A stretch of DNA of 64,000 nt from Antedon mediterranea (taxonomy: Eukaryota > Echinodermata > Crinoidea > Comatulida > Antedonidae). This document shows positions 24,921 through 63,784 of the stretch, piece after piece (the first letter of the stretch is position 1; each line of letters opens with the position of its first letter). The translations under genes and the position numbers were made by a program. The stretch spans positions 24,832,101 through 24,896,100 of the forward strand of contig NC_092677.1 in NCBI RefSeq assembly GCF_964355755.1, read 5' to 3'. The notes under the pieces are model-generated. The model was not told the DNA's origin, searched no databases, and saw only the letters and a program-made list of their open reading frames with translations.

Positions 24921-25805
24921 TTAGTCTTTCTTCAAAATCATAAACTGCATGTCCAGCAACTTCTGATAATTATATTCATACCGCTGAACAAGTTCATCAA
25001 GATATTCTTCCTCTTGAACAGGGTTGAACTGTTTCTCTTTGTACTTTTTAATGACTTTAAATCCTGAAGCAGAAGCAATTTCTAAAAGGACTTCAGTATT
25101 TCCACCATGAAGGTTATCTCCGTAGATCAAGTAAGAACTCTTTGATGCATTACGCAGAAGACACTTCAGGTTGTGTTTGAAATGTCGCAGGCCCTTAGCA
25201 GCGCTCACAAACTTGTACATCAGTATGATATCGGCTTCGGATACGCGGGATTTGATCCCTTCCGTGGCAAGGCAGTTGATATCATGTCGACGGTACCTTA
25301 TATGGATTCGATCGGAATCAATAGGTCTCAGTTGGTCTTTAACGGCACGCCAGGCTCCTTTCCATCGGCGGTATTTATCGATAACCGTAGCATCAAGAAC
25401 TACGTTTCTGCTTCTTCGTTTTAGAAGACTCTGCAGATAGATATACAAGCCAAGTACATCCGTTCCTGGACCGCCTCCAATAGAGCAAACCTTCAGGTTC
25501 AAGTCTCCTTGTTCGCCTTCTTGATGCCAAACTGAAGGGTCTAAATTCAGCCTACGAATTCCATATCCAACAGAATAGCAAAGAGTACTGAAGTACTGAA
25601 ACATGTACGCCGCCTGGTATCTCCGATCGTTGAAATCAACTGAACTGCTCTGACATAAAGCCCGATAATCGGTGTACGACGTCGACAATTCCATTATGAC
25701 ATCGTACATATCTGTATCGCTTATTTTACACTTGTTTTTCTTTTCATATTTTCGTATCAAAGCCAAAGGAGCTTCACGAGCAATGAGCAACACTGATTTC
25801 TCCAT
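24921..25805 (-). CDS. Methyltransferase-like protein, array copy 1 (intact, single exon)
   Basis: 294 aa, one exon. I do not recognise the family by name; the fold reads as a class I (Rossmann) SAM-dependent methyltransferase. An N-terminal helical part holds RRYQAAYMFQYF (61-72). Motif I, VCSIGGGPGTD, is at 106-116 and would bind the SAM methionine side. DATVIDKY (138-145) would give the acidic beta-2 residue for the ribose. HDIN (174-177), the strand ADIILMYKFVSA (191-202) and SYLIYGDN (224-231) follow, then a last hydrophobic strand MQFMILKK. No signal peptide or TM segment, so probably cytosolic or nuclear. Nothing shows the substrate. It is the left-most member of the array and nearly identical to copy 4. 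The ATG gives the family N-terminus MEKSVLLIA and follows a TATA box by 47 bp. Confidence 0.8.
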   Translation of the reverse strand: MEKSVLLIAREAPLALIRKYEKKNKCKISDTDMYDVIMELSTSYTDYRALCQSSSVDFNDRRYQAAYMFQYFSTLCYSVGYGIRRLNLDPSVWHQEGEQGDLNLKVCSIGGGPGTDVLGLYIYLQSLLKRRSRNVVLDATVIDKYRRWKGAWRAVKDQLRPIDSDRIHIRYRRHDINCLATEGIKSRVSEADIILMYKFVSAAKGLRHFKHNLKCLLRNASKSSYLIYGDNLHGGNTEVLLEIASASGFKVIKKYKEKQFNPVQEEEYLDELVQRYEYNYQKLLDMQFMILKKD

Positions 25806-25840
25806 CTTGTGACTTACCGCTTAGGGCCTAAATGAATTTT

Positions 25841-25852
25841 CGCGCCTTTATA
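25841..25852 (-). promoter_or_regulatory. TATA-like box of array copy 1
   Basis: TATAAAGGCGCG on the minus strand, first T 47 bp before the ATG. The same box with TATAAAGGC stands before copy 4. At the usual 31-bp spacing the leader would be about 16 nt. Confidence 0.5.
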
Positions 25853-26030
25853 GAGTAGAGTCTAATATTGAAATTGAATTGCCCGCCTTTACAATCATAC
25901 GTCACGAGTAATATTCTATTATTAGAAATATGGAATTTCCAAACTGATCGTTTCAGTTTCATGACGTCATAGTATTGATCGATAACAGCATAAGCGTTCC
26001 AATATCTATCCATTATCAATAACGTGAAAA

Positions 26031-27278: not shown

Positions 27279-28097
27279 TTACAGTTTTTTTATCCAAATC
27301 TGAAAACACATATTCAGTTGCTTTCCATTTAAATCATCACACTGTGGTCGATTGCGGAATGGAATAAATCCAGCACGTTCGGCAATTCCAGAAAAGATTT
27401 CAGTAGAACCATCTTTACTATCGTCTCCGTAGATCAAGAGCGAATTTTGAGATGCTTTACGAAGAATAGTCGTCAGATTCCTCTTGAAATTAGGCAAGGA
27501 TTTAACAACGCTGACAAACTTAATCAGCAGTAAAATGTTTGCTTCAGTAACAGATTTTTTCACTATACGTGTCGCAGGGGTGTTTATATCATATCCAATG
27601 TACCCATTCATTTTGATCCAAACACCTTTTGCCGATTCAGCTGCTTTAACCAGACCTTCCTGGTCAGCATTAAGGTTCAGCTTTTTCTCAATGACATTCC
27701 AGGAGTTCTCCCATTCATAGTATTTATCAATAATCGTTGCAGTAAGAACCAATGTTCGGTCCTTTAAGATGCTTCTCACGTATGCATAAACTCCAACAAC
27801 ATCAGTTCCAGGTCCTCCTCCAATTGAACAAACATTTAGGTTTAACAGGTTTTTGCCATTTAGGCCAAAATCATCTGGTTTTAAATTGAACCTGCCAAGT
27901 TCATCGGTAATAAAATCACGGAGTTCTGGAAAGTACTGGCGCATATATGCCGCTTGGTACTTGCGTGTGTCAAAAGGAATTTCTACATAGTTCGGATTGT
28001 CGTATGCTTCTTTCAAAAAGGTTTCTACATCCGACATTTCGTCCTCCAAAAGCAAACTACAATAATCATTATCAGTAGGCCTAACTGTTCTGTGCAT
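27279..28097 (-). CDS. Methyltransferase-like protein, array copy 2 (intact)
   Basis: 272 aa from the ATG that aligns with the other members (MHRTVRPTDNDY). Motif I VCSIGGGPGTD is at 89-99, followed by TATIIDKYYEW, a GYIGYDINTPAT block shared with copy 8, ILLLIKFVSVVKSL and SLLIYGDD (Asn of GDN replaced by Asp). It ends IWIKKL. The frame stays open upstream to an ATG at 28232, which would add a hydrophobic, Cys-rich N-terminus (LATFCCYMLVCEFVITW). I prefer 28097 by homology, but the longer form, perhaps membrane-anchored, is possible. It lies about 5.9 kb from the next recognisable family relic. Confidence 0.72.
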   Translation of the reverse strand: MHRTVRPTDNDYCSLLLEDEMSDVETFLKEAYDNPNYVEIPFDTRKYQAAYMRQYFPELRDFITDELGRFNLKPDDFGLNGKNLLNLNVCSIGGGPGTDVVGVYAYVRSILKDRTLVLTATIIDKYYEWENSWNVIEKKLNLNADQEGLVKAAESAKGVWIKMNGYIGYDINTPATRIVKKSVTEANILLLIKFVSVVKSLPNFKRNLTTILRKASQNSLLIYGDDSKDGSTEIFSGIAERAGFIPFRNRPQCDDLNGKQLNMCFQIWIKKL

Positions 28098-28430
28098 CTT
28101 ACATGGTTCGGGATATGCTTTGACATTAATACACAAATTGGTACACAAAACACACGCGTCATTGGTCCTACGTCTGGTCCACGTTATTACAAATTCACAA
28201 ACCAACATATAACAACAAAAAGTAGCTAACATATATTGCAAAAATCAATAAAATAGAATCCACCACACAGGATGCATCAATCGATTAGTTAGCTAGCATG
28301 TGTAGTTAAATTGAAATTATTTAAATCAACCTTAATTATGATTGGCCAAATCCACCAAAACTACAATTACATCATCTGCAAATTTTAGTAAGCTTATCTA
28401 TGGTTAGCCGGATCCAATTACAAACGTCAC
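28098..28430. other. Upstream of array copy 2; no separate gene seen
   Basis: Holds the alternative in-frame N-terminal extension of copy 2 (to 28232) and AT-rich sequence. The open frame at 28372-28554 on the minus strand is a Gly-rich translation of the neighbouring C-rich minisatellite. Confidence 0.45.
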
Positions 28431-34157: not shown

Positions 34158-34280
34158 GAATTCAATGTTTGCTTCAGTGAATGATGTTTAAATCACTACA
34201 TGTCACAGAGGGATGCTTATATCGTATTCAATGTACCCATTCTTGATCCAAACACATTTTGCCGATTCTGCTGTTTCTAT
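34158..34280 (-). pseudogene. Relic of a methyltransferase-like array gene
   Basis: The plus-strand string GTATTCAATGTACCCATTC and the following GATCCAAACACATTTTGCCG match the middle of array copy 2 (27590-27645). On the minus strand the relic keeps the ESAKCVWIKNGYIEYDI block, then stops. No other part of the gene remains nearby. Confidence 0.7.
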
Positions 34281-34537
34281 ATGAAACTCTAGGCGTTCTA
34301 TCACTGTTTATGCTAACTTCAATAAAAAAAATCCATTTTGATGCATGCTTCATCATAAAAATAGTGCGTTGTTTTCACTCTCCGGAGCGGTACCGTGGTC
34401 ATGTGATTTTCGACCAATCACGTTCACGTATTTAGGCTATGTTAATATACAGAATATGTTCATCTCCTAAATGATTGTGACGTGCCATTCCAATGCTTTC
34501 TTATTTAAATAGAACAAGAAAAAGATAATGAAAGTCA

Positions 34538-35449
34538 TTACTTCTTTACCCAAACCATGAAGCACATACTTAGATTCTGTTGGTGGATTGTAATATACTT
34601 TTCATCCAAATCACGTAGTGCTCCATCCTTCGGAATTTGAAATTCGACCTCGTCGTTCGTAAACAAGCATGTAAATCCAGCATGTTCGGCAATTCTAGAA
34701 AAGATTTCAGGTGAACCATCTTCATTGTTGTCTCCGTAGATCAAGAACGAACCCGCAACAGCATTAGATAGGAGATCCGTCAGATTTTCCTCAAAACTAG
34801 CCAAGGATTTAACTACGCTTACAAACTTAATCAGCAGTATAACTTTTGCTGAATTCACTATATTCTTTACTATATTTCTCGCATTATATTTACCTATATC
34901 ATATCCAAGGCAGTCGTAATTTATCTGATCATTCTCGAATAGATCTAAATCCTGCCGAAAGGAATCCCACACGTTCTTCCACTTATAGCATTTATCAACA
35001 ACCGTTGCATTAAGAATCAATTGTTTATCAATCTTATGCTTGTCTTTCATCAAGCTTCGCATGTACCTATAAAATCCAAGTACATCGGTTCCTGGACCAC
35101 CACCAATGGAACAAACATTTAGCTCTAACGATTCTGCTTGGTCATTTAAACCAAAATAACGATAAGGGTTTAAATCGAACATGTCAAGTCCATATTTAAC
35201 CGAATAACAAAAAGCTGGAAAGTACATAAACATGTATGCGGCTTGGTGTATAGGATCATCGAATCGAATGTTTACATACCTTTCATTTCTCTCTGAATCA
35301 GACAAAAACTGTAATATACGACGCATTTCGTCGTTGATTATATCCTGATGAGCGGCAGCTGCAATAGGTAGGACTGGCATTTCCATATTGCACACACAAC
35401 TTGTATTTAGAGAAATACAGATGTCGGCTTTTCTCTTACGTGAAAACAT
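34538..35449 (-). CDS. Methyltransferase-like protein, array copy 3 (intact)
   Basis: 303 aa from the first ATG (MFSRKRKADI). The ATG at 35386 (MEMPVLPIAAAAHQ) is the one that aligns with the rest of the family. Motif I VCSIGGGPGTD is at 112-122, followed by NATVVDKCYKW (Tyr to Cys), VILLIKFVSVVKSL, SFLIYGDN and CFMVWVKK at the end. The usual YQAAYM reads HQAAYM. A TATAATC box starts 35 bp before the first ATG. If the leader is only a few nt, ribosomes could skip to the inner ATG. The basic SRKRK at the longer N-terminus could act as a nuclear signal, which is speculation. Confidence 0.75.
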   Translation of the reverse strand: MFSRKRKADICISLNTSCVCNMEMPVLPIAAAAHQDIINDEMRRILQFLSDSERNERYVNIRFDDPIHQAAYMFMYFPAFCYSVKYGLDMFDLNPYRYFGLNDQAESLELNVCSIGGGPGTDVLGFYRYMRSLMKDKHKIDKQLILNATVVDKCYKWKNVWDSFRQDLDLFENDQINYDCLGYDIGKYNARNIVKNIVNSAKVILLIKFVSVVKSLASFEENLTDLLSNAVAGSFLIYGDNNEDGSPEIFSRIAEHAGFTCLFTNDEVEFQIPKDGALRDLDEKYITIHQQNLSMCFMVWVKK

Positions 35450-35477
35450 GTTGAAATAAAATATTCTGGATTTGAAG

Positions 35478-35484
35478 ATTATAC
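35478..35484 (-). promoter_or_regulatory. TATA-like box of array copy 3
   Basis: TATAATC with its first T 35 bp upstream of the ATG at 35449. A weaker match than those of copies 1, 4 and 7. Confidence 0.3.
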
Positions 35485-41253: not shown

Positions 41254-42147
41254 CTAATACATGTATAAATCTTTTTTTTGCCAAAGCATATAACACATGG
41301 TGAGCCTCTTTTGATAACCAACGTAGTAATAGTCTTCAAGCAGATTAAGGTAACGTCTGTCAGCTTTTGGTAGATTACAACCCTTTATAGTCATTGTTTT
41401 AGGATATGTAAGCATCCTAAATCCGGCATGTGATGCCATTTTTTCAACAGTAACTTGTAATTTTCTGCTTATCCCATCCCCGTATATCAAGTACGCATTT
41501 GGGCGCGCTTCTTCGAGGAGATAAGTCAACATGTTCCCGATATTTCGAAGGCCTTTAACTGCGCTTACAAACTTGTATAGCAGTATAACATCTGCATTAT
41601 AGATATCATTACGGACATGATATTTTGCCTCTTTAGTGATATCGTGTCTGATATACCGCATCTGGATCCGAGAAGAATCCACATAATCTAGAACGGCACC
41701 CCAGGCTTCTTTCCAATCATATTTATCAATTACAGTAGCATCCAATTTCACATTTATGTTTTCGTTACGCAGGTACATATATAATCCAAGTAAATCAGTT
41801 CCTGGACCTCCTCCAATCGAACAAACCTTTAATGTTGTAGGCCGCCTATGTACACCATTTTGTCGAAAAATGTCCTTAAGATACCATTTGAAATTCAAGT
41901 TTTGAAGTACAATTTCAACTGAATGACAAATTGCTGGAAAGTACAGATACATATATGCTGCTTGATATAGTGAGTCGTTAAAATTAACTGAGTCACTGTT
42001 CTTCAGCCTGGTACCTTGGTATGATTCAGACAACGTTCGTATACATTTCTCTATTTCATCATCGCTTATTTCACAATTGTTTTCCTCTTCACACTTTTGG
42101 AGCAATGATAAATGAGCATAATAAGAAATTTCTGGTACCGACTTCAT
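41254..42147 (-). CDS. Methyltransferase-like protein, array copy 6 (intact)
   Basis: 297 aa. Motif I VCSIGGGPGTD at 108-118, DATVIDKYDW, HDITKEA, VILLYKFVSAVKGL, AYLIYGDG (Asn of GDN replaced by Gly) and CYMLWQKK. The N-terminus MKSVPEISYYAHLSLL aligns with copies 1 and 4. It is one of the more diverged members, with a Lys-rich tail DLYMY after the last strand. Its start codon is the last of six ATGs in a 14-nt repeat, described separately. Confidence 0.8.
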   Translation of the reverse strand: MKSVPEISYYAHLSLLQKCEEENNCEISDDEIEKCIRTLSESYQGTRLKNSDSVNFNDSLYQAAYMYLYFPAICHSVEIVLQNLNFKWYLKDIFRQNGVHRRPTTLKVCSIGGGPGTDLLGLYMYLRNENINVKLDATVIDKYDWKEAWGAVLDYVDSSRIQMRYIRHDITKEAKYHVRNDIYNADVILLYKFVSAVKGLRNIGNMLTYLLEEARPNAYLIYGDGISRKLQVTVEKMASHAGFRMLTYPKTMTIKGCNLPKADRRYLNLLEDYYYVGYQKRLTMCYMLWQKKDLYMY

Positions 42148-43235: not shown

Positions 43236-44138
43236 TCATGGTTTTGTCCAAAACATAAAGGACATTTTTATATTTCGCTGGGAATTGAAATCATAATCGC
43301 ATTCAAGATCCTTGAGGTATGAATGCCTATCAAATGTAAGATCCTTTTTTTTCTCGTCCATTTTTAGTTGAAATTCGGCATCATTAGCAATTTTCTTGAT
43401 GGTTTGATTACATGAGCCCCATGAATTGTCCCCGTAAATCAAGTACGAGTTGTGAGGAGCTTTCTTGAGAAGATCAGTAGAGTTTCCCTCGAAGTTAGGC
43501 AGTCCATCAACAGCGCTTACAACCTTGAATAACATGATAACATTCGCTTTGGAGATGCATGATGTTACCTCGTCTGTCAGAGGTTCATTGACATCATGTT
43601 CAATGTACTTAATATTAATCTTATCAGAACTTAGGTTTAACTTCTTCTGAAAGGCTATCCAAATTCGCTCCCAACCATCGAATTTGTCAATAATCGTAGC
43701 GTTAAGAATCAGTTTTCTGTCTGTAGATAAACCTCGTAAGTAAATATATAATCCAAGTACATCGGTTCCTGGACCACCACCAATGGAGACGACATTTAGA
43801 CTTAAAACACGTTGATTTCTATTTCTTTGCCAAACCGAAGATTCAAAATCGAACAATGGAGTGTTCTGATCTTCTGACATAATACCCAGTCCAAATGTAA
43901 CAGAATAGCAAAATGCTGGGAAGTATAGAAACAGATAGGCTGCTTGGTATCTGCGATCGTTGAAATTAACCGACTTACTCTTTTTCAAAAGATAACCTTT
44001 ATACGATTCACACAATTCCTCTAAAAGTGTACGAACATCGTTCCAGCTTAATGTACAGTTCATTTCACGTTCATATTTAGCGAGCAAAGACAAGTGAACA
44101 CAACGAGAAATTTTAAACAGTGGGTCTAACTTTTCCAT
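43236..44138 (-). CDS. Methyltransferase-like protein, array copy 7 (intact)
   Basis: 300 aa, sister of copy 5. Motif I VVSIGGGPGTD at 116-126 with Val for Cys, NATIIDKFDGW, HDVNEP, VIMLFKVVSAVDGL, SYLIYGDN and SFMFWTKP at the end. The duplication with copy 5 also covers part of the promoter. TATTTATAAA begins 32 bp before the ATG, so a standard start site would fall at the start codon. A Ser replaces Leu in the FEGNSTDLL block. The stop lies within 100 bp of a relic of another copy. Confidence 0.8.
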   Translation of the reverse strand: MEKLDPLFKISRCVHLSLLAKYEREMNCTLSWNDVRTLLEELCESYKGYLLKKSKSVNFNDRRYQAAYLFLYFPAFCYSVTFGLGIMSEDQNTPLFDFESSVWQRNRNQRVLSLNVVSIGGGPGTDVLGLYIYLRGLSTDRKLILNATIIDKFDGWERIWIAFQKKLNLSSDKINIKYIEHDVNEPLTDEVTSCISKANVIMLFKVVSAVDGLPNFEGNSTDLLKKAPHNSYLIYGDNSWGSCNQTIKKIANDAEFQLKMDEKKKDLTFDRHSYLKDLECDYDFNSQRNIKMSFMFWTKP

Positions 44139-44634: not shown

Positions 44635-44960
44635 AAGCACATTTCCTTTCTTTAAACAAATACAACTCCTATCAAGCCAATGCTGATGTATTCCATTATA
44701 TTTCTTCTCAGATTAGGCCTATGCAGCTAGCCTCTTCTATCTGGAATAGGAAATGTATTTGTTGTAAAAGCTGTAGGCATAGATTCCTCAAATTGTAAGT
44801 TTCTGGCTTTAAAGCCGGCATGCCTGGCAATATCTACACCGTCAGGTTTTGGTCGAAGTTCGGCAATCCTTTGACTCCGCCTACAAATTTTAACACGAGT
44901 ATAGGCTCTTTCACACCTGTTCCGAATGTCAATGCAATATTTCTATTGGCGCATAACCGC
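44635..44960 (-). pseudogene. Internally deleted relic of an array gene
   Basis: Reading down the minus strand: PILVLKFVGGVKGLPNFDQN (44835-44910) keeps the beta-4 block. The frame then breaks at an internal deletion that removes the YGDN region. GVDIARHAGFKARNLQFEE continues in another frame at about 44765-44840. A degenerate C-terminus follows to about 44640. Non-functional. Confidence 0.7.
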
Positions 44961-45139: not shown

Positions 45140-45988
45140 TTATTGTTTCTTCCAAAGCATAAAGCTCATCTTCAATTTCTTCTGGTGATTCATACCATAT
45201 CTTTCATCAAAAAGACGTAGTCCGCCATCATCTGGAATTTCAAATTCCTCGTACAATGCTCTCTCTAAGCATATAAACCCTGCATCTTCCGCAATATGTC
45301 TAATTGAGTCAGTGAAACGACACTCACTGTTGCCACCGTAGATCATATGCGAATGTTGAGGCGCATTACGAAGGAGATCCGTCAGGTTTTTCTAGAAATG
45401 AGGTAAGGATTGAACTGCGCTTACAAAGTTGAACAGGAGTATAACATTCGCTTCAGAGACGCATCTTTTCACTATGTCTGTCGCAGGGGTGTTTATATCA
45501 TATCCAATGTACCCTTCCATATGGATCCGACCAGCTTCGACGGAATCCAAGTTCTGCTTAACGAAATTCCAGGCTTCTACCCATTCATAATATTTATCAA
45601 TAATCGTTGCGTTAAGACGGAAATCCCGGTGAACATTTTTGTCTTGCAGAAAACTGTGCATGTACCTGCAAAATCCAAGTACGTCAGTTCCGGGACCTCC
45701 TCCAATGGAACAAACATTCAGCTGTAGCGGTTCGTGCTGATCATTTTGGCTCCAAACAACAGATGGTAAATTAAACTTATCAAGTCCATACTTAACCGAA
45801 TGACAACAAGCTGGAAAGTAGAGATACACATATGAGGCTTGGTATCTGCATTTGTTATAAGGAATTTCAACATAGTTTGGATTAGTGTACGCTTCAGACA
45901 AAGATGTTATTATACCATTTATTTCATCGTCATTCAAAAGCAAATCCCGGTGAACATCGTTAGCAATTTCCAGCACTGATCTCTCCAT
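45140..45988 (-). pseudogene. Array copy 8 with a premature in-frame TAG
   Basis: The start MERSVLEIANDVHRDL and 198 codons are intact, with motif I VCSIGGGPGTD at 92-102, NATIIDKYYEW, GYIGYDINTPAT and VILLFNFVSAVQSL. A TAG at 45392-45394 then stands where relatives have Glu or Lys in the F-E-x-NLTDLL block. The same frame continues uninterrupted (KNLTDLLRNAP, MIYGGNS, FEIPDDGG, KMSFMLWKKQ) to a stop at 45140. YGGN replaces YGDN, a second change in a conserved motif. A single nonsense change in an otherwise good gene indicates recent loss; read-through or an assembly error is the alternative. Confidence 0.8.
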
Positions 45989-49950: not shown

Positions 49951-50562
49951 TTAACTGTTATAGCGCCCTCTATAATAAACCTTCCGATATTTCATTTTAA
50001 TTTTACGGAGAAAATATAATATCGGAAAAATTAACTTCCTTTTTTTCCAAAGCATAAAGCTCATCTTTAGATCCTTCTGGTGCCCCCACCAACCAGGTTT
50101 GTTATCAAAACCATTCAGTACTTTCTTATCATCATCTGGAAGAGAACATTCCTGGAACAAGGATGTCGACAAGAGCATAAAATGTGCATTTATGGCAATA
50201 CGTGCAAAGATTTCAGTAAAACCATCGCCACTGTTGTCTCTGTAGATCAAGTACGTATTTGGACTTGCGTTAGACAGGAAATCTGTAAGATTTTGCTCAA
50301 AGTTCTGCAACCCTGTAACTGCACTTACAAACTTGAACACCAGTATAACATCCGCTTCAGCTACAGGTCCTGTCACTGTACGTGCTACTGGAGAGTTGCT
50401 AATATCATGCGCAATGAATTTGGTATTAGGAAAATCGATCGTTCCAGCTTTACTTAGATCCAAACTTCCCACAACTGGATCCCAGACTTCCTTCCATTCA
50501 CTGTATTTATCAATAATTGTTGGAGTAAGAAACAATTCTCGGGGATCGTCTTTTGTTTGCAT
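49951..50562 (-). pseudogene. Array copy 9, N-terminally truncated, lacking motif I
   Basis: About 203 codons open from near the loop before TPTIIDKYSEW. HDISNSP, VILVFKFVSAVTGL, FEQNLTDFLSN and KMSFMLWKKR are present. The N-terminal helices and the GGGPGTD motif are missing: the sequence upstream of 50562 switches directly to the array flank repeat, which points to a deletion that joined upstream flank to mid-gene. GDN is changed to RDN. Unable to bind SAM in the family's way, so probably a pseudogene, although the remaining frame is intact and runs into a basic tail. Confidence 0.7.
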
Positions 50563-50569
50563 GTATGTT

Positions 50570-51936: not shown

Positions 51937-53783
51937 CTAAACCGGTGGTTGTTGTTTTCTCAAAAGCATAAAGTACATTTCTTCGTTATTTTAGTGGTTC
52001 TCATGATACCTTCCATCAAGTTCATTGAGTGCTCCATCATCTGGAATTGTTATTACCTGGTGTTGGATTTCCGGTTTGACGTTTTTAAAACCAGCATTTT
52101 CTGCAATTCTTCTGAAAGTTGGAATCAAACGATCGTCACTGTTGTCGCCGAAGAACAAGTACGAACCTAGAGACGCATTACGGAGGAGATCCGTCAGGTT
52201 TTGCTCAAATATAGGCAATGCTGCAATTGCACTTACAAACTTGAACAGCAGTATGACATTCGCTTCAGAGACGGATCTTCTCACCAGAGGTCCCGCAGGT
52301 TTGCTTATATCATATCCAATATACCCGTTCAAATGGATCGAAGCAGCTTCATCTGGATTCTGGTTAGCAATGGCATTCCAGGCGTCCTCCCATTCATAAT
52401 ATTTATCAATAATGGTTGCATTAAGAACCAATTCTCTGGCGTCGTTACTTTTTTTAAAGCTTCGCATGTACCTATAAAATCCAAGTACATCAGTTCCCGG
52501 ACGCGATTTTTTTTTTCGTACATAAGTTGGGGACCCCCTCATGAAACGTCACAAAATAAACATGAATAATTCATCAGTTAAATTTTCTTGTTCCGTGTGC
52601 ACCCAAGCGTATAGCGAAGTGATTACAGTTTACACAAGTGCGGTACGATTCTAGGCCTATCTCCGCTGTGGTTGCCGCGTGCGATTATTTCATAATAGAA
52701 TAGCGGCGTTTTGTGTGGATTGTCGAAATAATCAGCCTTTAATTTATGGTGTTTTTAATATAATTTATTACTAAAGAATTACGTGTTAAAATTATAGTTT
52801 CTAATGATACTATTAGGCCTAATTACTAGTCTCTAAACCCATGTCTATTCTAGTAGTAGCTGTGATGTGTTGGTGTGTGTGACGTGTGTGTTAGTTAGGT
52901 ATGACACAGTCCGAGTAATAAGTCAGCAAAATTAAATAATAAACATTACACAAAAATACATTTTTTTATTCTCGTGGGTCTAATCTTCCCATCTCATGTG
53001 TTCATATACGCGCATTTTTAAAGTTCCTTTGAGTACATGCATATTGTTTGATAATAAAATAGCAGAATTAAAAAATTACAGTACACAAATTATACACATT
53101 CTTTATTCTTGTGGGTCTAAGCTTTCTTTGGGCTATGTCCAATTACTACTTAGTTTAATGTCTTGCCTACCTGTCGATTAGCCTCGACACATTTTGCATA
53201 GTGGACGTGTGTGTGAAGAAGAGGTGCGCGAAGGCAATCACGTGAATTGACCTAGACTCCTAGGCCTATTGTAGAAAGAATCGTATCGCGGTTGTTGTGT
53301 AATCAGATCACTTCTTGTTGCTATACGCCTGGGTGCACACGGAACAACAAATTTAACTGATGAATTATTCATGTTTATTTTGTGACGTTTCATGAGGGGG
53401 TCCCCAACTTATGTACGAAAAAAAAAATCGCTTCCCGGACCACCACCAATGGAACACACATTCAGATTTAACTGTTCTCCGTTATCGTAATTTTCAAACC
53501 AAAAAGCACGATTCAAATGAAACTCATCAAGTCCAACCTTAACCGAATGGCAAAGAAATGGAAAGTACATGTACATATATGCAGCTTGGTATCTGGATTT
53601 GTTATAAGGAATTACAACATACTTTCGTTTATGGAATTCTGCAGCCGAACTCCGTCCTGTATAAAAACTCACTGTTGAAGACAAACCCTTTAAAATATTA
53701 TGCATTTCCAAAGCCAATTCGTTGTCGTCGTGAATCAACTGCCGATGAGCATCGGTAGCAATTTGTTGCACTGTTCTCGCCAT
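51937..53783 (-). pseudogene. Array copy 10, split by a TIR element and ended early by TAA
   Basis: The N-terminal part (MARTVQQIATDAHRQL, YQAAYMYMYFPFLCHSVKVG, NVCSIGGGPG) ends at about 53432. The C-terminal part resumes at 52502 with GTDVLGFYRYMRS, NATIIDKYYEW, GYIGYDISKPAG and VILLFKFVSAIAAL. The 929 bp between (52503-53431) are a transposable element flanked by 9-bp duplications, so the break falls exactly inside the codons of GGGPG. Separately, a TAA at 51991-51993 replaces the expected Gln codon before the last strand, whose EMYFMLLRK is still readable to 51939. Two independent lesions make this a clear pseudogene. Confidence 0.88.
52503..53431. mobile_element. Non-autonomous long-TIR DNA transposon (Mutator-like by TSD), 929 bp
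   Basis: The ends read GCGATTTTTTTTTTCGTACA on both strands, and the inverted arms stay nearly identical for about 115 bp (GGGGACCCCCTCATGAAACG, then GTGCACCCAAGCGTATAG), with weaker pairing to about 190 bp. The flanks are a 9-bp direct duplication TTCCCGGAC at 52494-52502 and 53432-53440. No transposase frame. The centre has a roughly 125-bp internal duplication around TTATTCTCGTGGGTCTAA. A 9-bp TSD with long TIRs is typical of Mutator-like elements. Confidence 0.9.
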
Positions 53784-54635
53784 CTTGTACAACTAATCGT
53801 CTTAGTATTAAATAACGATAAAGATGTAGATTGTTCCAATATAGATTGTTTATGAGTACGCTTTATGCACAAAAAACAACTGATGGCCAGACTTAATTAT
53901 TGTAGTCACACTGAATTAAACAACAATCGAAAATTATATTTAGAATAACAATGACACATTCTTTATTTCTTCAAGTTAATTACATTAATATGCATAGGAC
54001 ATAACAAAAATAAATTGTGCAACCTCGTCTCCCGTACCGAAGAAATCGGCCCACAGTCTGATGACGAATTCTAATTGGTAGATCCAGTTGGTTTGGCTAT
54101 ATTATACACTACTTTAAAGCGGAATTTTAAAACTAATTTTAAGTATTGAGAACAACAATCAAATTGACGTTGACCTCCGTCGTTCATTTACTGAAGTGAA
54201 AACAATACTACCTGATAAATGTGACATTAAAAACCTATTTGCATAAAAATGCTAAACTACATAGTTATGATGTATAATGAAAACGATAAGAATTACCCAA
54301 AATGTATAACACAAAGAAATTGCAAAGAATAAAAAGCAGAAATACAATTATGAATATAGAATAAAGACATTGTCAAAGAAGTAATGGGCAAAATATTAAC
54401 AGATAAATTCAAAGGTAGTCCAAGAAACATCGATCGAAGCATAGTGATCGATAATATTGATGATGATCAAATGTATACCAAATAAAGTAATTACGAAAAC
54501 AATAACTACGATTCTGTTTCATTTTGTAAAACGAACCTGAGGTTTATAGTCCAGACAAAATATCAATAACTTACCTATTGACAACGAATAAATGCATGAA
54601 CAAACATAAGCAGCGCACAATAAACATACAGTATA
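53784..54635. other. Intergenic between array copies 10 and 11; no gene seen
   Basis: AT-rich. Words such as AATAAAAAGCAGAAATAC and AACATCGATCGAAG match the array flank repeat at about 47085-47200, so this is probably an older copy of that flank. Confidence 0.5.
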
Positions 54636-55757
54636 CTATTTCTGCTTCTTTCTAACTACTGTATTGTTTTTTTTCCAAAGCATGAAGCTCATGTTTATCT
54701 TCTTTTGGTGATAATAGGTATATATCTTATCAAGTTTATTAAGTTCTGCATCAACTGGAATTTTTCTATTCACTAACACGGGTCGCTGCGTCACACTTTC
54801 AAATCCGGCAGCAGTGGCAATTCCCTTAAAGACTTCAGCAAAATCACCTCTACTATTGTCTCCATAGACCATGAGGGAACCTAGGCGCGCATTAGAGAGG
54901 AGCTCTCTCATGTTTGCTTCAAAAATTTGCAAGCGGCGGTTATCCGCTTCCGCATTTTGACGGCGGTTACCAATAACCGCACTTACAAACTTTATCAGTA
55001 GAATAACCTTGGCATCAGCGACAGAATCTAGCACATTTTGTGTCGGTCGAATGTTTATATCATATCCAATGTATTCCCCCATATTGATATTGTGAGCTTC
55101 GTCTGGATTCTTGCTCACAACGGCATCCCAGGATGTCTTCCATTCACAGTATTTATCAATAATCGTTGCGTTAAGAACAACATTTCGGTTGTCATTATCT
55201 CTTCTCAGCAAATCTTTCAAGTACCTGCAAAATCCAAGTACATCAGTACCGGGACCTCCACCAATAGAGCAAACATTAATTCCTTCTAAATGATTATTTT
55301 CAAACCAACAATCACGATTTACATGAAACAAATTAAGTCCAATCTTAACCGAATGACAAAGAGCTGGAAAGTACAGAAACATATATGCCGCTTGATATCT
55401 GTATTCGTTATATGGGACTTGTAGATTTTGTCCCCGCCAGAAGATATTCTGTGTGTTAGACAAATATTTTAAAGCACCACGAATTATATCACGTAGTGCG
55501 TTGTCTTGTAAGAGTAAATCTAGATGTACAGCAGCAGCAAGTTGTTGCACCGGTTCGACTTGTGGTTGCACCGGGTCTGCTGGTGGTTGCACCGGGTCTG
55601 CTGGTGGTTCCGGCGGGTCTGCTGGTGGTTGCACCGGGTCTGCTGGTGGTTCCGCCGGGTCTGCTGGTGGTTCCGCCGGGTCTGCTGGTGGTTCCGCCTG
55701 ATTTCCATCATTGTTTAAATTCAAACCCTCTAGACCAGCGACCTGATCATCCGCCAT
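54636..55757 (-). CDS. Methyltransferase-like protein, array copy 11, with N-terminal heptapeptide repeats
   Basis: 373 aa from the ATG at 55757 (MADDQVAGLEGLNLNNDGNQ). Residues 21-67 are about seven imperfect copies of a Pro-rich heptapeptide (AEPPADP / VQPPADP), coded by a 21-bp tandem. The methyltransferase-like core follows: YQAAYMFLYF (121-130), VCSIGGGPGTD (162-172), NATIIDKYCEW, GYDINIRPT, VILLIKFVSAV with an extra loop GNRRQNAEADNRR after it, SLMVYGDN and MSFMLWKKN. The tail is basic. Only this copy and copy 13 have the disordered acidic/proline-rich head, and their upstream sequences are also nearly identical, so they form a sub-lineage. The head may mediate binding, but nothing shows with what. 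Confidence 0.8.
   Translation of the reverse strand: MADDQVAGLEGLNLNNDGNQAEPPADPAEPPADPAEPPADPVQPPADPPEPPADPVQPPADPVQPQVEPVQQLAAAVHLDLLLQDNALRDIIRGALKYLSNTQNIFWRGQNLQVPYNEYRYQAAYMFLYFPALCHSVKIGLNLFHVNRDCWFENNHLEGINVCSIGGGPGTDVLGFCRYLKDLLRRDNDNRNVVLNATIIDKYCEWKTSWDAVVSKNPDEAHNINMGEYIGYDINIRPTQNVLDSVADAKVILLIKFVSAVIGNRRQNAEADNRRLQIFEANMRELLSNARLGSLMVYGDNSRGDFAEVFKGIATAAGFESVTQRPVLVNRKIPVDAELNKLDKIYTYYHQKKINMSFMLWKKNNTVVRKKQK
55558..55697 (-). repeat. Coding 21-bp minisatellite in array copy 11
   Basis: Direct repeats of GGTCTGCTGGTGGTTSCRCC on the plus strand. In the gene frame they give AEPPADP/VQPPADP; other frames also stay open, which produces shadow ORFs on both strands. Confidence 0.85.
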
Positions 55758-55777
55758 CTTCCCCAAACAAATGGGTG

Positions 55778-55787
55778 TTTTTATTAT
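55778..55787 (-). promoter_or_regulatory. TATA-like box of array copy 11
   Basis: TATAATAAAA with its first T 30 bp before the ATG, in a block conserved with copy 13 (ACACCCATTTGTTTG...). Confidence 0.4.
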
Positions 55788-56865
55788 AACAATAAAATGT
55801 CGGTTTCCCCAGAATACAAACTAAAGTATTTTGGATGATTCGAAGATTATTAATGTTCAAGTACACACTGCTGTATGCACAAAATGCAATCTGATGACCA
55901 GAGTAAAATGATTGACTCAACACACTTTCACACTGAAATAATTATTGATTACTTCGAAAAACGTCAATTCTATTTTGAATAACAATAACACAATGTTTTC
56001 ATTCATCAAATGTATTCATACATTTATGGGAATTAAAATAAAACCAATATTTAGAACAATGTGAACAACCCTAAATAGATGAGCTGATGATGCTGGCTCT
56101 ATTGTCAAGTGTGAATTTTCTAAAGAAAACCAACTGTGCTTCCCTAGGGCAGTATATGTGATACTAGCCAATGAGAAATGCTATATTATTGACACTTTAG
56201 TGTGCAACAAAATTAAATCAATATTCAAAACATTGTGAAGCATGAATAGATAAACCAGTGGTGTTGGCTCTATTGTTCCATCTTCATGACAGTGTGGGGA
56301 GGAGGAGAGAGAGAGAAAGGAGAGGAAGAGATTGGGGGGGGGGGGGGGGGGGCGGAAGAGAGAATGTGCGAATTTGCAAAACAAAGGCATTGCTTCTCTC
56401 AGTACTGTACTGTACGTGACATCCTGTGAGAGTATATTTGCTACTTCATAATTTTCAAATATTATTACGGTAGAACAACTATCTTTTAATACTAAGTGTC
56501 TGTTTTGGGAATAAATACTCTCTCATAAATAAGTCCATCTCATTCAGAGCCAAGTCAGCATGTAATGTATGTGATATCCTGTGACAGCCTGTGTACTTTA
56601 TTCATAGTACATAATTTTCAAATATTATTACGGTAGAACAACTATCTTTTTACTAAGAGTCTGTTTAGGGAATAAATACTCTCTCATAAATAAGTCCATC
56701 TCATTTAGAGCCAAGTCAGCATGTAATTTCACAACATCATCCCTTTCGGTCGCTAAAATGTGTTTCAAAGTACGATACAAATCTAGCAGACTTGATTCAA
56801 GTACTGACATGGCCTCTTTTGAATTGATTCCACTTTGTTTGGTTTTTTTTTCACTAAACTACATT
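55788..56865. other. Intergenic; flank repeat, G run, no gene
   Basis: 55788-55900 is nearly identical to 63817-63930 (duplicated promoter flank). A run of about 20 G lies at 56333-56352, preceded by GGAGGAGAGAGAGAGAAAGG. About 56460-56540 and 56615-56720 are a direct duplication (ATTTTCAAATATTATTACGG, then AATAAATACTCTCTCATAAA). No supported gene. Confidence 0.55.
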
Positions 56866-57371: not shown

Positions 57372-59175
57372 AATAGCTATACTGAGTATATACACTCTCA
57401 CGTACATGGAATCTTAATAGCTATACCGAGTATATACACTCTCACGTACATGGAATCTTAATAGCTATACTGAGTATATACACTCTCACGTACATGGAAT
57501 CTTAATAGCTATACTGAGTATATACACTATCACGTACATGGAATCTTAATAGCTATACTGAGTATACACACTCTCACGTACATGGAATCTTAATAGCTAT
57601 ACTGAGTATATACACTCTCACGTACATGGAATCTTAATAGCTATACTGAGTATATACACTCTCACGTACATGGAATCTTAATAGCTATACTGAGTATACA
57701 CACTCTCACGTACATGGAATCTTAATAGCTATACTGAGTATACACACTCTCACGTACATGGAATCTTAATAGCTATACTGAGTATATACACTCTCACGTA
57801 CATGGAATCTTAATAGCTATACTGAGTATATACACTCTCACGTACATGGAATCTTAATAGCTATACTGAGTATATACACTCTCACGTACATGGAATCTTA
57901 ATAGCTATACTGAGTATACACACTCTCACGTACATGGAATCTTAATAGCTATACTAAGTATATACACTCTCACGTACATGGAATCTTAATAGCTATACTG
58001 AGTATATACACTCTCACGTACATGGAATCTTAATAGCTATACTGAGTATATACACTCTCACGTACATGGAATCTTAATAGCTATACTGAGTATATACACT
58101 CTCACGTACATGGAATCTTAATAGCTATACTGAGTATATACACTCTCACGTACATGGAATCTTAATAGCTATACTGAGTATATACACTCTCACGTACATG
58201 GAATCTTAATAGCTATACTGAGTATATACACTCTCACGTACATGGAATCTTAATAGCTATACTGAGTATATACACTCTCACGTACATGGAATCTTAATAG
58301 CTATACTGAGTATACACACTCTCACGTACATGGCATCTTAATAGCTATACTGAGTATATACACTCTCACGTACATGGAATCTTAATAGCTATACTGAGTA
58401 TACACACTCTCACGTACATGGAATCTTAATAGCTATACTGAGTATATACACTCTCACGTACATGGAATCTTAATAGCTATACTGAGTATATACACTCTCA
58501 CGTACATGGAATCTTAATAGCTATACTGAGTATATACACTCTCACGTACATGTAATCTTAATAGCTATACTGAGTATATACACTCTCACGTACATGGAAT
58601 CTTAATAGCTATACTGAGTATACACACTCTCACGTACATGGAATCTTAATAGCTATACTGAGTATATACACTCTCACGTACATGGAATCTTAATAGCTAT
58701 ACTGAGTATATACACTCTCACGTACACGTAATCTTAATAGCTATACTGAGTATATACACTCTCACGTACATGGAATCTTAATAGCTATACTGAGTATATA
58801 CACTCTCACGTACATGGAATCTTAATAGCTATACTGAGTATACACACTCTCACGTACATGGAATCTTAATAGCTATACTGAGTATATACACTCTCACGTA
58901 CATGGAATCTTAATAGCTATACTGAGTATACACACTCTCACGTACATGGAATCTTAATAGCTATACTGAGTATATACACTCTCACGTACATGGAATCTTA
59001 ATAGCTATACTGAGTATACACACTCTCACGTACATGGAATCTTAATAGCTATACTGAGTATACACACTCTCACGTACATGGAATCTTAATAGCTATACTG
59101 AGTATACACACTCTCACGTACATGGAATCTTAATAGCTATACTGAGTATACACACTCTCACGTACATGGAATCTT
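57372..59175. repeat. 44-bp satellite, 41 head-to-tail copies
   Basis: Exactly 41 units of 44 bp starting AATAGCTATACTGAGTATAT and ending CACGTACATGGAATCTT, with no length change between copies. The main variation is one position (GTATATAC versus GTATACAC). B-type (GTATACAC) units cluster at the right end, where the last four are all B. Rare single changes occur (ACCGAG in unit 2, CTATC in unit 4, ACTAAG in unit 14, GGCATC in unit 22, TGTAATC in unit 27, ACACGTAATC in unit 31). Confidence 0.95.
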
Positions 59176-59741
59176 AATTTCCTTTCTGAATAAATCCTTT
59201 TGTTAATTATTTGCAAAATTTGTTTTTATAACTATCAATTTATATTAGACAATTTCAAGTAATTGTTCTTACTATAAACATTGTATAAAGAATTATAATC
59301 AAATAAACCCAAATAAAATGCCAACAACTATAAAAGGTTTTTACATAAAACTAATTACTGCAACAGATACTTATATTTATTAAGTTAATATACAATACCT
59401 TTACATTAGAATTCCTAGGCTAAAATCACAAAAACCGCAAGACCAAAACAAGGCTAGAATCCCAATTTAAATTAAATTTCAAATGAAAACAATCAGAAAC
59501 TAAGTTGATAGAGTTTTATATTGTAATGCGTAGTAGTGTAGTACTGTATAATTAAAAAGTGCGTCTCGAATTAGAATTATCGAAGATAGAAAAGTATGGT
59601 ATAACAATAAAAACAGTGAAGTTTAAACGGAATAAATAATAGCCGTCTTGGAAAATGTATGTTTAAATGTTATAGCGCCATCTATACTAAACCTCTCGAT
59701 ATTTCATTTCATAAGTTTTGCAGATATAATAATGTGACAAA
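59176..59741. other. Intergenic between satellite and array copy 12; no gene seen
   Basis: AT-rich 3' flank of copy 12. The block around TATAGCGCCATCTATACTAA (59672) matches TATAGCGCCCTCTATAATAA (49959), the 3' flank of copy 9, so duplicated units include the downstream side as well. Confidence 0.5.
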
Positions 59742-60617
59742 TCAAACTTCGTTTTTTTTCCAAAGCATAAAGCTCATCCTTAGATTCATCTGGTGCCACC
59801 AATGATAATTTGCATCCAAATCATCCAGAGCTCCATCATCTTCAATGGAAAATTCCTGGTGGAAAGATTTCGACAAGCGCATAAAATCTGCACCTATGGC
59901 AATACGTTCAAAGATTTCAGTAGAACCACCGCCACTATTGTCTCCGTAGATCAAGTACGTATTTGGAGCTGCGTTACGCAGGAGATCTGTCAGGTTTTGC
60001 TCAAAGTTTGGCAATCCTGTAACTGCGCTTACAAACTTGAAGAGCAGTATAAATTTCGCTTCAGCAACATGTCTTGTTATATCTTCTCTTAACGGGTCAT
60101 TTATATCATGTGGATAGTACAACGTCGTTGCGATGCGATCAACGTCATCCAAATTATCCCGAATGACATCATTGGCTTGACACCATCCATCAGTGTATTT
60201 ATCAATAATGATTGCATCAATAGCCAATTGTTGGATGTCTCCATTTTCTTGCATGAAATCTCGCATGAATCTACAAAATCCAATTACATCAGTTCCTGGA
60301 CCTCCTCCAATGGAGCAAACCTTCAGAGGGAACCGAGGTTGTTGATCGTCATTATCTTGGTTTAAACAATCAGGAGGTAAATTCAACCTGTCAAGTCCAT
60401 ACTTCACCGAATGACAAAGAGATGAAAAATACAGATACACATATGCTGCTGCGTATTCAGGCTGGTTATAATTAATTTCAACATGGTCTGGATTATTGTA
60501 TGCTTCAATCAAATTCGATATGATATTAGGCATTTGCAAAGCTAATTCGTTATTGTCAATAATAAACATTAAATCTTGATGAGCACCAGCAGCAATTTCT
60601 TGAACTGATTTTGCCAT
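59742..60617 (-). CDS. Methyltransferase-like protein, array copy 12 (intact)
   Basis: 291 aa from MAKSVQEIAAGAHQDL; the frame extends further upstream, but that part shows no homology. Motif I VCSIGGGPGTD is at 100-110, with DAIIIDKYTDGW, HDINDP, FILLFKFVSAVTGL, FEQNLTDLLRNA, TYLIYGDN and MSFMLWKKN. YQAAY is changed to YAAAY. It is closest to copies 8-10 in the N-terminus and to the truncated copy 9 in the C-terminal half and 3' flank. It is apparently the only full-length survivor of that sub-lineage. No clear TATA box at the usual distance. Confidence 0.8.
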   Translation of the reverse strand: MAKSVQEIAAGAHQDLMFIIDNNELALQMPNIISNLIEAYNNPDHVEINYNQPEYAAAYVYLYFSSLCHSVKYGLDRLNLPPDCLNQDNDDQQPRFPLKVCSIGGGPGTDVIGFCRFMRDFMQENGDIQQLAIDAIIIDKYTDGWCQANDVIRDNLDDVDRIATTLYYPHDINDPLREDITRHVAEAKFILLFKFVSAVTGLPNFEQNLTDLLRNAAPNTYLIYGDNSGGGSTEIFERIAIGADFMRLSKSFHQEFSIEDDGALDDLDANYHWWHQMNLRMSFMLWKKNEV

Positions 60618-62083
60618 CTTGCACAAACAAATCGTATTGGTAATTGATAACGATAAAGATGTCAGTTTTTCAAAATATGTAAAATACAGTATTCTCGGGA
60701 TGCTAAGTGTATGCTTGTGTACGCTGTATGCCCAAAATACAATCTGGTGACTCTGTAGCCAGGTGACGCCTAAAACTGATGAAACTTTTACACTGAATTG
60801 AACATCAATCGACAATTCTATTAGAATAACAATCAAAAATGGTTTTATTTGTCAAGTTTATTCATACATTAATGTGCATTAGGCCGTATAACAAAAATAC
60901 TAATTGCTTAGCGTCGCCTCCCCAACCAAAGAAATCAATATACCTGTAGGAGAGTACAGAACAATGTGAACACTGAACAAATCAACAGATAATGCTGACT
61001 CCATTGTCTTCAGTGGAAATGTGTGTGAAGAAGTAAGAAAAAGCTGGTGCTGGTGCTTTACAAGAGTGGTATACGTGATACTAACACAAGAAATAGATGC
61101 CATGGCGTCATATGGATGATAGTTTATTCATAATAATATATTAAATATATTATCATATATCAATATAAAAAACATCTGAAAACTCTGAATGAATTAGCTG
61201 GTGATACTGGTGCTATGGTAGAACAACTATTTTAATACTAAGTTGTAATGTGAATTTGATACATACATTTTAACTTTTTGATGTCATTTTTATATTTAAT
61301 ATTGTAATTTTATTTGGCTGCAAATGTATTTAACTTGTTCAAAAATAAAGATACTATGATATTTAATGCACAGAAACAAGTCGAATAAAACATAAATGCT
61401 GTTTTAGTTGTGAATTACAGTACAGTATTTAATAACAATTTTACCGATATCGAGTAGTGATATTGTCAAACATAAGAGTTCTTAAAAAATTCCACTTTCA
61501 CACAGAATTTAGGCGCTTACAAAATTGACTACAACCATCTAAAATCTACTTTCTAAATTTTAAATATCCAATTTAATTAAAATATGTCAAACACAAATTT
61601 GCAGTAAAAATGATACATGGTTACGATAAAAAAAAAAGATATCGAAATTATACACACAAAAATAACAGCAATTGCACAAAACGAGCAGGATAAAAGCAGA
61701 TACAATGAATACAACTAAAGAGCAAAGAGCTATAACTTGAGACAATACACAATGGTAGTCACAGAAACGTCGATCGAAGGAATTTAAATATATTGTAAAT
61801 TGTTACACTTGGAAACCTCTAATAAATCCGCCATAAATTCAATTTAAAAGGCAATACATTCAATAAACTAAGACGTTTTGGAAAAAAGAAAACAACATAT
61901 GCCACTACCAAATAAAAGCAAGCTCGGATTTTGTTTCATATTTTGTAAAATGGGCCTAAAATATATTTTTAAGGAGACAATATACTTTATCAATGTTAAA
62001 CCTAACAACGAATGAATGTATTTTTCCCAATGCTTCCTTTAGTTGAAAGCTAGGCCTACTCAAAAGATGCAACAACATATATC
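60618..62083. other. Intergenic between array copies 12 and 13; flank repeat
   Basis: 61370-61790 is a third copy of the flank repeat (words AATTACAGTACAGTATTTAA, TTTACCGATATCGAGTA and AATTTGCAGTAAAAATG). 60940-61090 resembles 56050-56170. The frame at 60900-61103 is not supported. Confidence 0.6.
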
Positions 62084-63784
62084 TTAATCAACTATTAATT
62101 GTTTTTGACAAATCATAAATATCATCTTTACCCTCTTTTGGTGGTAATACGTATACTCCACATCAAGATTATTATGTTCTTCATCTGTTGGAATTCGGCT
62201 TTCCACGGTCATGTACTCTTGAACTCTTCTAAATCCTGCTCCAATGGCAATTACTTCGAATTCGTGACAACGTCGACGACTATTGTCTCCATAGACCAAG
62301 TACGAACCTTGCCTTGCACGACTGAGGAGGGCTTTCATGTTTACCTTAAAATAAGGCAATTGGTCCACTGCGCTTACAAACTTGATCAGTAGAATAACCT
62401 TTGCATTAGCGACAGATTGTAACACGGCATTTGTTGGTTGGTCGTTTATATCATATCTAATGTACTGTTGCATATCGATTTGACCAGCTTCGTTTACAAC
62501 GGCTTCCGGGACTTGATTCCAGACTTGATTCCAGACTTGCTGCCAGACTTGCTGCCATTCACTGTATTTGTCAATAACCGTTGCATTAAGAACCAATCTT
62601 CGGTTTATCCCACGTAAAATTAAGTACCTATAAAATCCAAGTACATCAGTTCCCGGACCTCCTCCGATAGAACAAACATTCAGCCTTAACGGTTCTTCCG
62701 GTCTTCCCGGTACATTTTCAAAAAAAGTATTTACATCTAAATTAAACTTGTCAAGTCCATATTTAACCGAATGACAAAGAGCTGGAAAATACAGAAACAT
62801 ATATGCAGCTTGGTACCTGTTGTTGTCATATGGAACTTGTAGATTGTGTCTTCGCCAGCTTTTACTGTGTGCATTAGACAAAAAGGTTAAAACACCACGA
62901 ATTATATTTAAACGTTCAGGGTCATCCATTAAAAATAAATGTTGATGTACAACAACAGCAATTTGTTGCGGTTGCACCAGGTCTGCTGGTTGCACCGGGT
63001 CTGCTGGTTGCACTGGGTCTGCTGGTTGCACCGGGTCTGCTGGTTGCACCGGGTCTGCTGGTTGCACCGGGTCTGCTGGTTGCACCGGGTCTGCTGGTTG
63101 CACCGGGTCTGCTGGTTGCACCGGGTCTGCTGGTTGCACCGGGTCTGCTGGTTGCACCGGGTCTGGTTGTTGCACCGGGTCTGGTTGTTGCACCGGGTCT
63201 GGTTGTTGCACCGGGTCTGGTTGTTGCACCGGGTCTGGTTGTTGCACCGGGTCTGGTTGTTGCACCGGGTCTGGTTGTTGCACCGGGTCTGCTTGTTGCA
63301 CCGGGTCTGCTTGTTGCACCGGGTCTGCTTGTTGCACCGGGTCTGCTTGTTGCACCGGGTCTGCTTGTTGCACCGGGTCTGGTTGTTGCACTGGGTCTGC
63401 TTGTTGCACTGGGTCTGGTTGTTGCACCGGGTCTGCTTGTTGCACTGGGTCTGCTTGTTGCACTGGGTCTGCTTGTTGCACTGGGTCTGCTTGTTGCACT
63501 GGGTCTGGTTGTTGCACTGGGTCTGCTTGTTGCACTGGGTCTGGTTGTTGCACCGGGTCTGCTGGTTGCACCGGGTCTGGTTGTTGCACCGGGTCTGGTT
63601 GTTGCACTGGGTCTGCTTGTTGCACTGGGTCTGGTTGTTGCACTGGGTCTGGTTGTTGCACCGGGTCTGCTGGTTGCACCCGTTCGACTGGTGCTTCCGC
63701 CCGATTTCCATCATTATTTAAGTTCAAACCCTCTAGACCACCGACAATATGTTCTATCTGATCATCACCTCGTTGTTCCGCCAT
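62084..63784 (-). CDS. Methyltransferase-like protein, array copy 13, with about 39 N-terminal hexapeptide repeats
   Basis: 566 aa from the ATG at 63784 (MAEQRGDDQI). A short head with GLEGLNLNNDGN, shared with copy 11, is followed at about 36-269 by some 39 hexapeptides: mixed VQQPDP and VQQADP, then a block of VQPADP. The core then begins: YQAAYMFLYF (about 324-333), VCSIGGGPGTD (about 370-380), NATVIDKYSEW, an extra in-frame tandem QVWQQVWNQVWNQV, RYDINDQPT, VILLIKFVSAV, SYLVYGDN (Arg-rich after it) and MIFMICQKQ (Trp of FMLWKK replaced). The repeat head should be an extended, acidic, disordered arm, and is likely length-polymorphic between individuals. The core looks intact. Confidence 0.8.
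   Translation of the reverse strand: MAEQRGDDQIEHIVGGLEGLNLNNDGNRAEAPVERVQPADPVQQPDPVQQPDPVQQADPVQQPDPVQQPDPVQPADPVQQPDPVQQADPVQQPDPVQQADPVQQADPVQQADPVQQADPVQQPDPVQQADPVQQPDPVQQADPVQQADPVQQADPVQQADPVQQADPVQQPDPVQQPDPVQQPDPVQQPDPVQQPDPVQQPDPVQQPDPVQPADPVQPADPVQPADPVQPADPVQPADPVQPADPVQPADPVQPADPVQPADPVQPADLVQPQQIAVVVHQHLFLMDDPERLNIIRGVLTFLSNAHSKSWRRHNLQVPYDNNRYQAAYMFLYFPALCHSVKYGLDKFNLDVNTFFENVPGRPEEPLRLNVCSIGGGPGTDVLGFYRYLILRGINRRLVLNATVIDKYSEWQQVWQQVWNQVWNQVPEAVVNEAGQIDMQQYIRYDINDQPTNAVLQSVANAKVILLIKFVSAVDQLPYFKVNMKALLSRARQGSYLVYGDNSRRRCHEFEVIAIGAGFRRVQEYMTVESRIPTDEEHNNLDVEYTYYHQKRVKMIFMICQKQLIVD
62966..63680 (-). repeat. Coding 18-bp minisatellite in array copy 13
   Basis: About 39 units GTTGCACCGGGTCTGSTK on the plus strand. 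Variants form blocks (CTGCTG, then CTGGTT, then CTGCTT, with ACTGGG for ACCGGG), consistent with stepwise expansion by slippage or unequal exchange. No unit contains a stop in three frames, so long spurious frames (62929-63714 minus, 62939-63721 plus) cross it. Confidence 0.9.

What the first reader, a model, noticed from the sequence alone, without database searches (positions are those of the whole stretch)
24921..63784. One-directional tandem array of intronless methyltransferase-like genes of an unrecognised family
Seen: 13 gene-sized loci and four relics, all on the minus strand over 39 kb, sharing YQAAY, SIGGGPGTD, ATIIDKY, FVSAV, YGDN and FMLWKK motifs. Established: GxGxG-type motif I followed by an acidic beta-2 end is the hallmark of class I SAM methyltransferases. 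Inference: a lineage-specific expansion under rapid birth and death, as seen in defence or self/non-self gene families; the substrate is unknown. Intronless structure beside 6-8 exon neighbours suggests retroposition or horizontal entry before tandem duplication.
Basis: partly seen in the sequence, partly recalled or inferred. Interest (0 to 1): 0.8.

Follow-up and report, generated by a model that had tools for sequence, protein, structure and literature searches.

The report
Expanding array of methyltransferase genes
An animal chromosome carries a one-direction row of about a dozen fast-changing, intron-free genes predicted to encode methyl-transferring enzymes, with more copies at other sites in the genome, some of them fused to an RNA-binding piece copied from a messenger RNA; the fold is well supported, but what the enzymes act on is unknown.

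Summary
The window has 10 intact and 3 broken gene-sized copies plus short relics, all on the minus strand, without introns in the matched coding frame. Two AlphaFold models (pLDDT 84 and 90) show a class I SAM-methyltransferase core behind an N-terminal helical layer. The only Pfam family that recurs across the array is Methyltransf_34 (PF11312), the presumed family of yeast Bmt6, just below its cut-off. The closest solved structures over the whole chain are METTL17/Rsm22 (Z 16-18, next 14.6), but the Rsm22 cysteine signature is absent. Genome-wide the family has about 20 intact members at four sites on two chromosomes. On C3 some copies are fused to intron-free RNA-recognition motifs copied from this genome's own poly(A)-binding protein gene; others end in a CaaX-like box. 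Copies evolve by tandem duplication, inter-copy recombination and loss: one sharp breakpoint, one pair sharing a 93% identical promoter over coding sequence with dS 0.58, one copy broken by a recent MULE-like insertion. Best reading: a lineage-restricted, RNA-directed methyltransferase expansion. The MTase fold is close to certain, an RNA substrate is more likely than not, an immune role is untested. Membership in Bmt6 or METTL17 is not established.

The parts
24921..25805 (-). intact MTase ORF, 294 aa; near-copy of 37304 (93%)
   Evidence: AlphaFold model pLDDT 89.8
27279..28232 (-). intact MTase ORF, 317 aa (conserved start probably internal)
34164..34289 (-). short MTase relic
   Evidence: tblastn E 3e-6
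34538..35449 (-). intact MTase ORF, 303 aa
37304..38191 (-). intact MTase ORF, 295 aa
38752..39666 (-). intact MTase ORF, 304 aa; mosaic relative to 43236
41254..42147 (-). intact MTase ORF, 297 aa; best match to PF11312 (25.8 bits, cut-off 26)
43236..44138 (-). intact MTase ORF, 300 aa (further similarity from about 42985)
44840..44950 (-). short MTase relic
45143..45988 (-). full-length MTase copy with one in-frame stop
49951..50562 (-). MTase copy lacking its 5' half; its upstream DNA matches that of the 45143 copy (79%)
51949..53798 (-). MTase copy split at the GGGPGT codons by an insertion
52495..53439 (.). MULE-like non-autonomous element: inverted ends of about 90 bp (98% complementary) plus 35 bp, 9-bp target duplication TTCCCGGAC
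54636..55757 (-). intact MTase ORF, 373 aa, N-terminal EPPADP/VQPPADP repeat
55758..56315 (.). 5' flank about 93% identical to the flank of the 62084 copy
59742..60617 (-). intact MTase ORF, 291 aa, strongly acidic (pI 4.5)
62084..63784 (-). intact MTase ORF, 566 aa, with about 39 copies of an 18-bp coding repeat (DPVQQA/P)

Best explanation
The array is a lineage-restricted expansion of single-domain class I SAM-dependent methyltransferases, most likely RNA-directed enzymes descended from a Methyltransf_34 (Bmt6-type) or Rsm22/METTL17-like rRNA methyltransferase stock. Predicted working: SAM sits in the GGGPGTD loop after strand 1, with the invariant Asp after strand 2 holding its ribose; the N-terminal helices and the C-terminal edge select the substrate; and a methyl group is passed to a base in RNA. 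On another chromosome the same domain gained poly(A)-binding RRMs through insertion of an intron-free PABP copy, which would bring the enzyme to polyadenylated RNA. Another pair gained a C-terminal CILL box, which would anchor it to membrane. Shown: the fold (as a confident prediction), motif conservation, genome distribution, fusions and mosaic evolution. Inferred: SAM binding, RNA as substrate, which parts select the substrate, and the roles of the fused parts.
For: Canonical seven-strand class I order behind N-terminal helices in two models. The best whole-chain structural matches are METTL17/Rsm22, Z 16.1-18.4 over 240-254 residues against 14.6 or less for all others, in both models. PF11312 is the only Pfam family that recurs, in 11 of 13 copies. 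A published methyltransferome analysis classed YLR063W (yeast Bmt6) as an RNA methyltransferase (PMC3153492), and it was later assigned to 25S rRNA U2843 (PMC9695239). GGGPGTD and the strand-2 Asp are invariant in 21 of 21. MTase-RRM fusions have best match PABP (1.8e-71; TIGR01628 9e-88), with the intron-containing donor found on C1. dN/dS over the MTase domain is 0.15-0.63, so the frames are under selection.
Against: PF11312 stays under its cut-off (25.8 of 26 bits at best; genome-wide search 24.7), and that YLR063W belongs to PF11312 is from my own knowledge. Structural identity to METTL17 is only 9-13%. Protein charge varies widely (pI 4.5 to 9.9), which does not suit one common RNA-binding surface. 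METTL17/Rsm22 may themselves be non-catalytic, so the resemblance does not prove catalysis. No expression data. The RRMs of the fusions are only moderately constrained (dN/dS 0.38-0.88). Both models rest on an alignment of 13 paralogues from the same window.
Confidence: 0.5

Rival explanations
1. The proteins are class I methyltransferases for small molecules or proteins (xenobiotic handling, secondary metabolism, or a reproductive-protein role), and expansion reflects substrate diversification.
For: The generic Foldseek ranking is dominated by small-molecule MTases. Surface charge is diverse. Divergence is fast in the end regions outside the SAM core in one pair.
Against: Full-length structural similarity is highest to rRNA-bound METTL17/Rsm22. 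The only recurring sequence match is PF11312, with a yeast RNA-modifying member. PABP RRMs were fused to one branch.
Confidence: 0.25
2. The copies are RNA-binding or ribosome-binding factors that keep a methyltransferase fold but no longer need catalysis, as argued for METTL17.
For: METTL17/Rsm22 is the closest fold. A METTL17 study reports no SAM density in the yeast structure and argues that methylation is not its conserved function (PMC11046306).
Against: GGGPGTD and the strand-2 Asp are invariant across 21 members that otherwise differ in most positions, which suggests that SAM binding is under selection. Another study reports tRNA methylation by yeast Rsm22 (PMC8171064).
Confidence: 0.15
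3. A self/non-self or antiviral effector family, as the first reader suggested (this concerns the role and is compatible with the best explanation).
For: Rapid birth and death, mosaic copies, promoter sharing, variable appended domains.
Against: No infection or expression data, no match of weight to any defence model, and the same pattern arises in reproductive and detoxification families.
Confidence: 0.15
4. Genes carried by a mobile element or an integrated virus rather than host genes.
For: Intron-free frames, one orientation, a giant-virus MTase with moderate structural similarity.
Against: Self-comparison of the array shows no terminal repeats that travel with the copies. The reverse transcriptase at 15.7 kb is a separate ORF outside the array. 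No relative was found in viral or prokaryotic contigs. One copy is itself the victim of a transposon.
Confidence: 0.05

Closest known systems
Pfam PF11312 Methyltransf_34 (fungal Bmt6/YLR063W-type, 25S rRNA m3U methyltransferase)
   Same: Only Pfam family recurring in the array (11 of 13 copies), aligned from before the YQAAY motif to about strand 3 in the best copy
   Different: Score just under the family cut-off. Here tandem, intron-free, multi-copy, with appended domains; yeast has one Bmt6 (own knowledge).
METTL17/Rsm22 (PF09243)
   Same: Best solved-structure match over the whole chain in two models: helical N-terminal layer plus MTase core
   Different: No Pro-Cys-His-x2-Cys signature in any member. 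The chain ends at strand 7, so there is no room for the OB-fold. The genome has a separate exon-split PF09243 gene at C8:13.64 Mb.
Cytoplasmic poly(A)-binding protein (TIGR01628)
   Same: RRMs fused to two C3 members are intron-free copies of the genome's own PABP start region, RRM1 and RRM2
   Different: No PABP domain in the window copies. The fusion proteins carry an MTase and long repeats instead of the PABP C-terminus.

Membership tests
class I SAM-dependent methyltransferase fold | seven-strand sheet in the class I order with a Gly-rich loop after strand 1 | tested here: met
   two AlphaFold models; strand order and PDB matches
class I SAM-dependent methyltransferase fold | Gly-rich motif I and acidic residue at the end of strand 2 | tested here: met
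   GGGPGTD and Asp141 (41254 numbering) in 21 of 21
class I SAM-dependent methyltransferase fold | methyl transfer activity | not testable with these tools
   needs enzyme assay
Methyltransf_34 (PF11312, Bmt6 type) | score over the curated Pfam cut-off (26 bits) | tested here: not met
   best 25.8 bits, E 7e-6; genome-wide 24.7 bits
Methyltransf_34 (PF11312, Bmt6 type) | methylation of U2843 of 25S rRNA to m3U | not testable with these tools
   needs assay
Rsm22/METTL17 (PF09243) | sequence match to PF09243 | tested here: not met
   no match in the copies; PF09243 finds another locus instead
Rsm22/METTL17 (PF09243) | Pro-Cys-His-x2-Cys metal/Fe-S cysteines | tested here: not met
   signature absent in all 21 members; features as described in PMC8171064 and PMC11046306
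Rsm22/METTL17 (PF09243) | overall fold | tested here: met
   Z 16.1-18.4, 240-254 residues, rmsd 3.3-4.2
defence-system proteins (PADLOC) | match to a known anti-phage defence model | tested here: inconclusive
   only two weak partial matches, E 0.002-0.005; the library covers bacterial systems

The most novel reading that the evidence does not exclude
The family is a lineage-specific set of RNA methyltransferase effectors in which a common catalytic core is diversified by gene conversion, promoter sharing and capture of targeting domains (poly(A)-binding RRMs, a prenylation box), giving the animal a fast-evolving way to mark or silence particular polyadenylated RNAs, such as viral or transposon RNA.
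Probability: 0.1. Interest if true: 0.85.

Novelty: new variant of a known kind. Interest (0 to 1): 0.5.

Why it matters
RNA methyltransferases of the rRNA type are normally single-copy, slowly evolving housekeeping genes. A genome with about 20 intron-free, mosaic, quickly diverging relatives, some fused to PABP RNA-binding domains, would be an unusual case of such a fold entering a birth-and-death regime, and gives concrete constructs with which to test what is being methylated.

Tried and rejected
Sponge origin (guessed from 18 chromosome-scale contigs): rejected, the genome has one Hox cluster of about 11 genes on C2, so a bilaterian; species not identified. Prokaryotic or viral source: pattern scans of viral and genome contigs found no relative, though the peptide patterns chosen did not include the GGGPGTD motif. 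Sequence relatives of the single-domain copies among solved structures: none of weight. NCBIfam: no match for the single-domain C8 copies tested. PADLOC: only two weak partial matches. Viral structure library: only general class I MTase similarity. Shared promoter motif across the array: no excess of common 8-mers over shuffles. Literature on PF11312/Bmt6-like expansions in animals: nothing found. Ends-versus-core selection contrast: significant in one pair (p 0.007), not in four others, so not claimed as general.

Full report
Observation. The ORF list and tblastn of every copy against the window confirm a one-direction array at 24,921-63,784: ten full-length open frames, one full-length frame with a single stop, one 5'-truncated copy, one copy split by an insertion, and short relics. 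The neighbours on the low side are ordinary multi-exon animal genes (aldo-keto reductase, SRCR receptor, carbonic anhydrase) and a LINE-type reverse transcriptase. The window lies at C8:24.83-24.90 Mb of a 354-Mb, 18-contig genome that has one compact Hox cluster, so a bilaterian animal.

Family across the genome. Protein searches of the whole genome find the C8 array, one intact copy at C8:11.48 Mb, a relic at C8:25.03 Mb, three copies at C3:30.18-30.22 Mb (one lacking an intact start) and six at C3:32.65-32.70 Mb. In all intact copies the matched coding frame is uninterrupted. The tree gives each C3 group full support as one clade and puts the C8 outlier inside the C8 array, beside the 24921/37304 pair.

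What the protein is. Two AlphaFold models built only from window copies (pLDDT 83.9 and 89.8) show the class I methyltransferase strand order preceded by helices. Foldseek gives class I MTases at about 1e-8. The structural re-alignment puts human and yeast mitoribosome assembly intermediates containing METTL17/Rsm22 first in both models, Z 16.1-18.4 over 240-254 residues, clear of the next entries at 14.6 or less. For the human entries the chain's identity as METTL17 rests on my knowledge of those structures; one yeast entry names it in its title. Pfam finds only Methyltransf_34 with any regularity in the window copies, at 14.7-25.8 bits against a cut-off of 26. GGGPGTD and the Asp after strand 2 are invariant in all 21 members compared. 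The Rsm22 cysteine signature is absent, and a separate exon-split PF09243 gene exists in the genome, so the array is not METTL17.

Fusions on C3. Two members continue in the same frame into RNA-recognition motifs. The 653-aa one has its best solved-structure match with a fungal polyadenylate-binding protein (E 1.8e-71) and matches TIGR01628. The 1,989-aa one carries RRM1, RRM2, a long tandem repeat and a second RRM1. The genome's own PABP on C1 has introns, and the fused RRM1-RRM2 runs straight across its first exon junction and includes the residues around the PABP start, so it derives from an intron-free copy, most simply a retrocopy. Two other members end in CPCILL, a CaaX-type box kept although the tails before it differ; the function of that box is inferred.

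Evolution. dN/dS over the MTase domain is 0.50-0.63 for close C8 pairs and 0.15-0.48 for C3 pairs, so copies are constrained but loosely. The 38752/43236 pair has a sharp breakpoint near residue 248 (0 of 2,000 permutations). The 54636 and 62084 copies share a 5' flank about 93% identical over 550 bp while their coding dS is 0.58, which selection on the protein cannot explain; recombination or conversion between copies can, and strong constraint on a promoter is a less complete alternative. One copy is broken inside the SAM-loop codons by a MULE-like element with 98% complementary inverted ends and a 9-bp target duplication. These are signs of continuing birth and death.

Mechanism and limits. 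The fold and the conserved SAM motif make a methyltransferase very likely. RNA as substrate is the best single guess, from three pointers: PF11312, whose yeast member is an RNA enzyme (PMC3153492, PMC9695239), METTL17/Rsm22 as nearest fold, and PABP RRMs in one branch. Against it stand the weak sequence link and the wide spread of charge. A defence role is possible and untested. No eukaryotic sequence database was on hand, so whether the family is truly restricted to this lineage is not established; 'lineage-restricted' is an inference from its absence in the collections searched and from the lack of literature.

Noticed in passing
G000:C3:32,671,000-32,695,300: Methyltransferase ORFs fused in frame to intron-free PABP RRMs; one ORF is 1,989 aa with many tandem repeats.
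   Followed up: partly
G000:C3:32,681,000 and 32,698,000 (L015, L024): Two MTase copies end in CPCILL, a CaaX-like box, after repeat-rich tails.
   Followed up: partly
57370-59178: 44-bp tandem repeat, 41 copies at 98% identity, between two methyltransferase copies.
   Followed up: no
52495-53439: MULE-like non-autonomous element with long inverted ends and a 9-bp target duplication, inserted in the SAM-loop codons of one copy.
   Followed up: yes
15720-17108: LINE-type reverse transcriptase ORF (PF00078), outside the array.
   Followed up: no
7305-9879: Exons of an SRCR-domain receptor with a probable transmembrane segment.
   Followed up: no
G000:C2:7.83-8.21 Mb: Single Hox cluster of about 11 homeodomains, nearly all on one strand.
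   Followed up: partly
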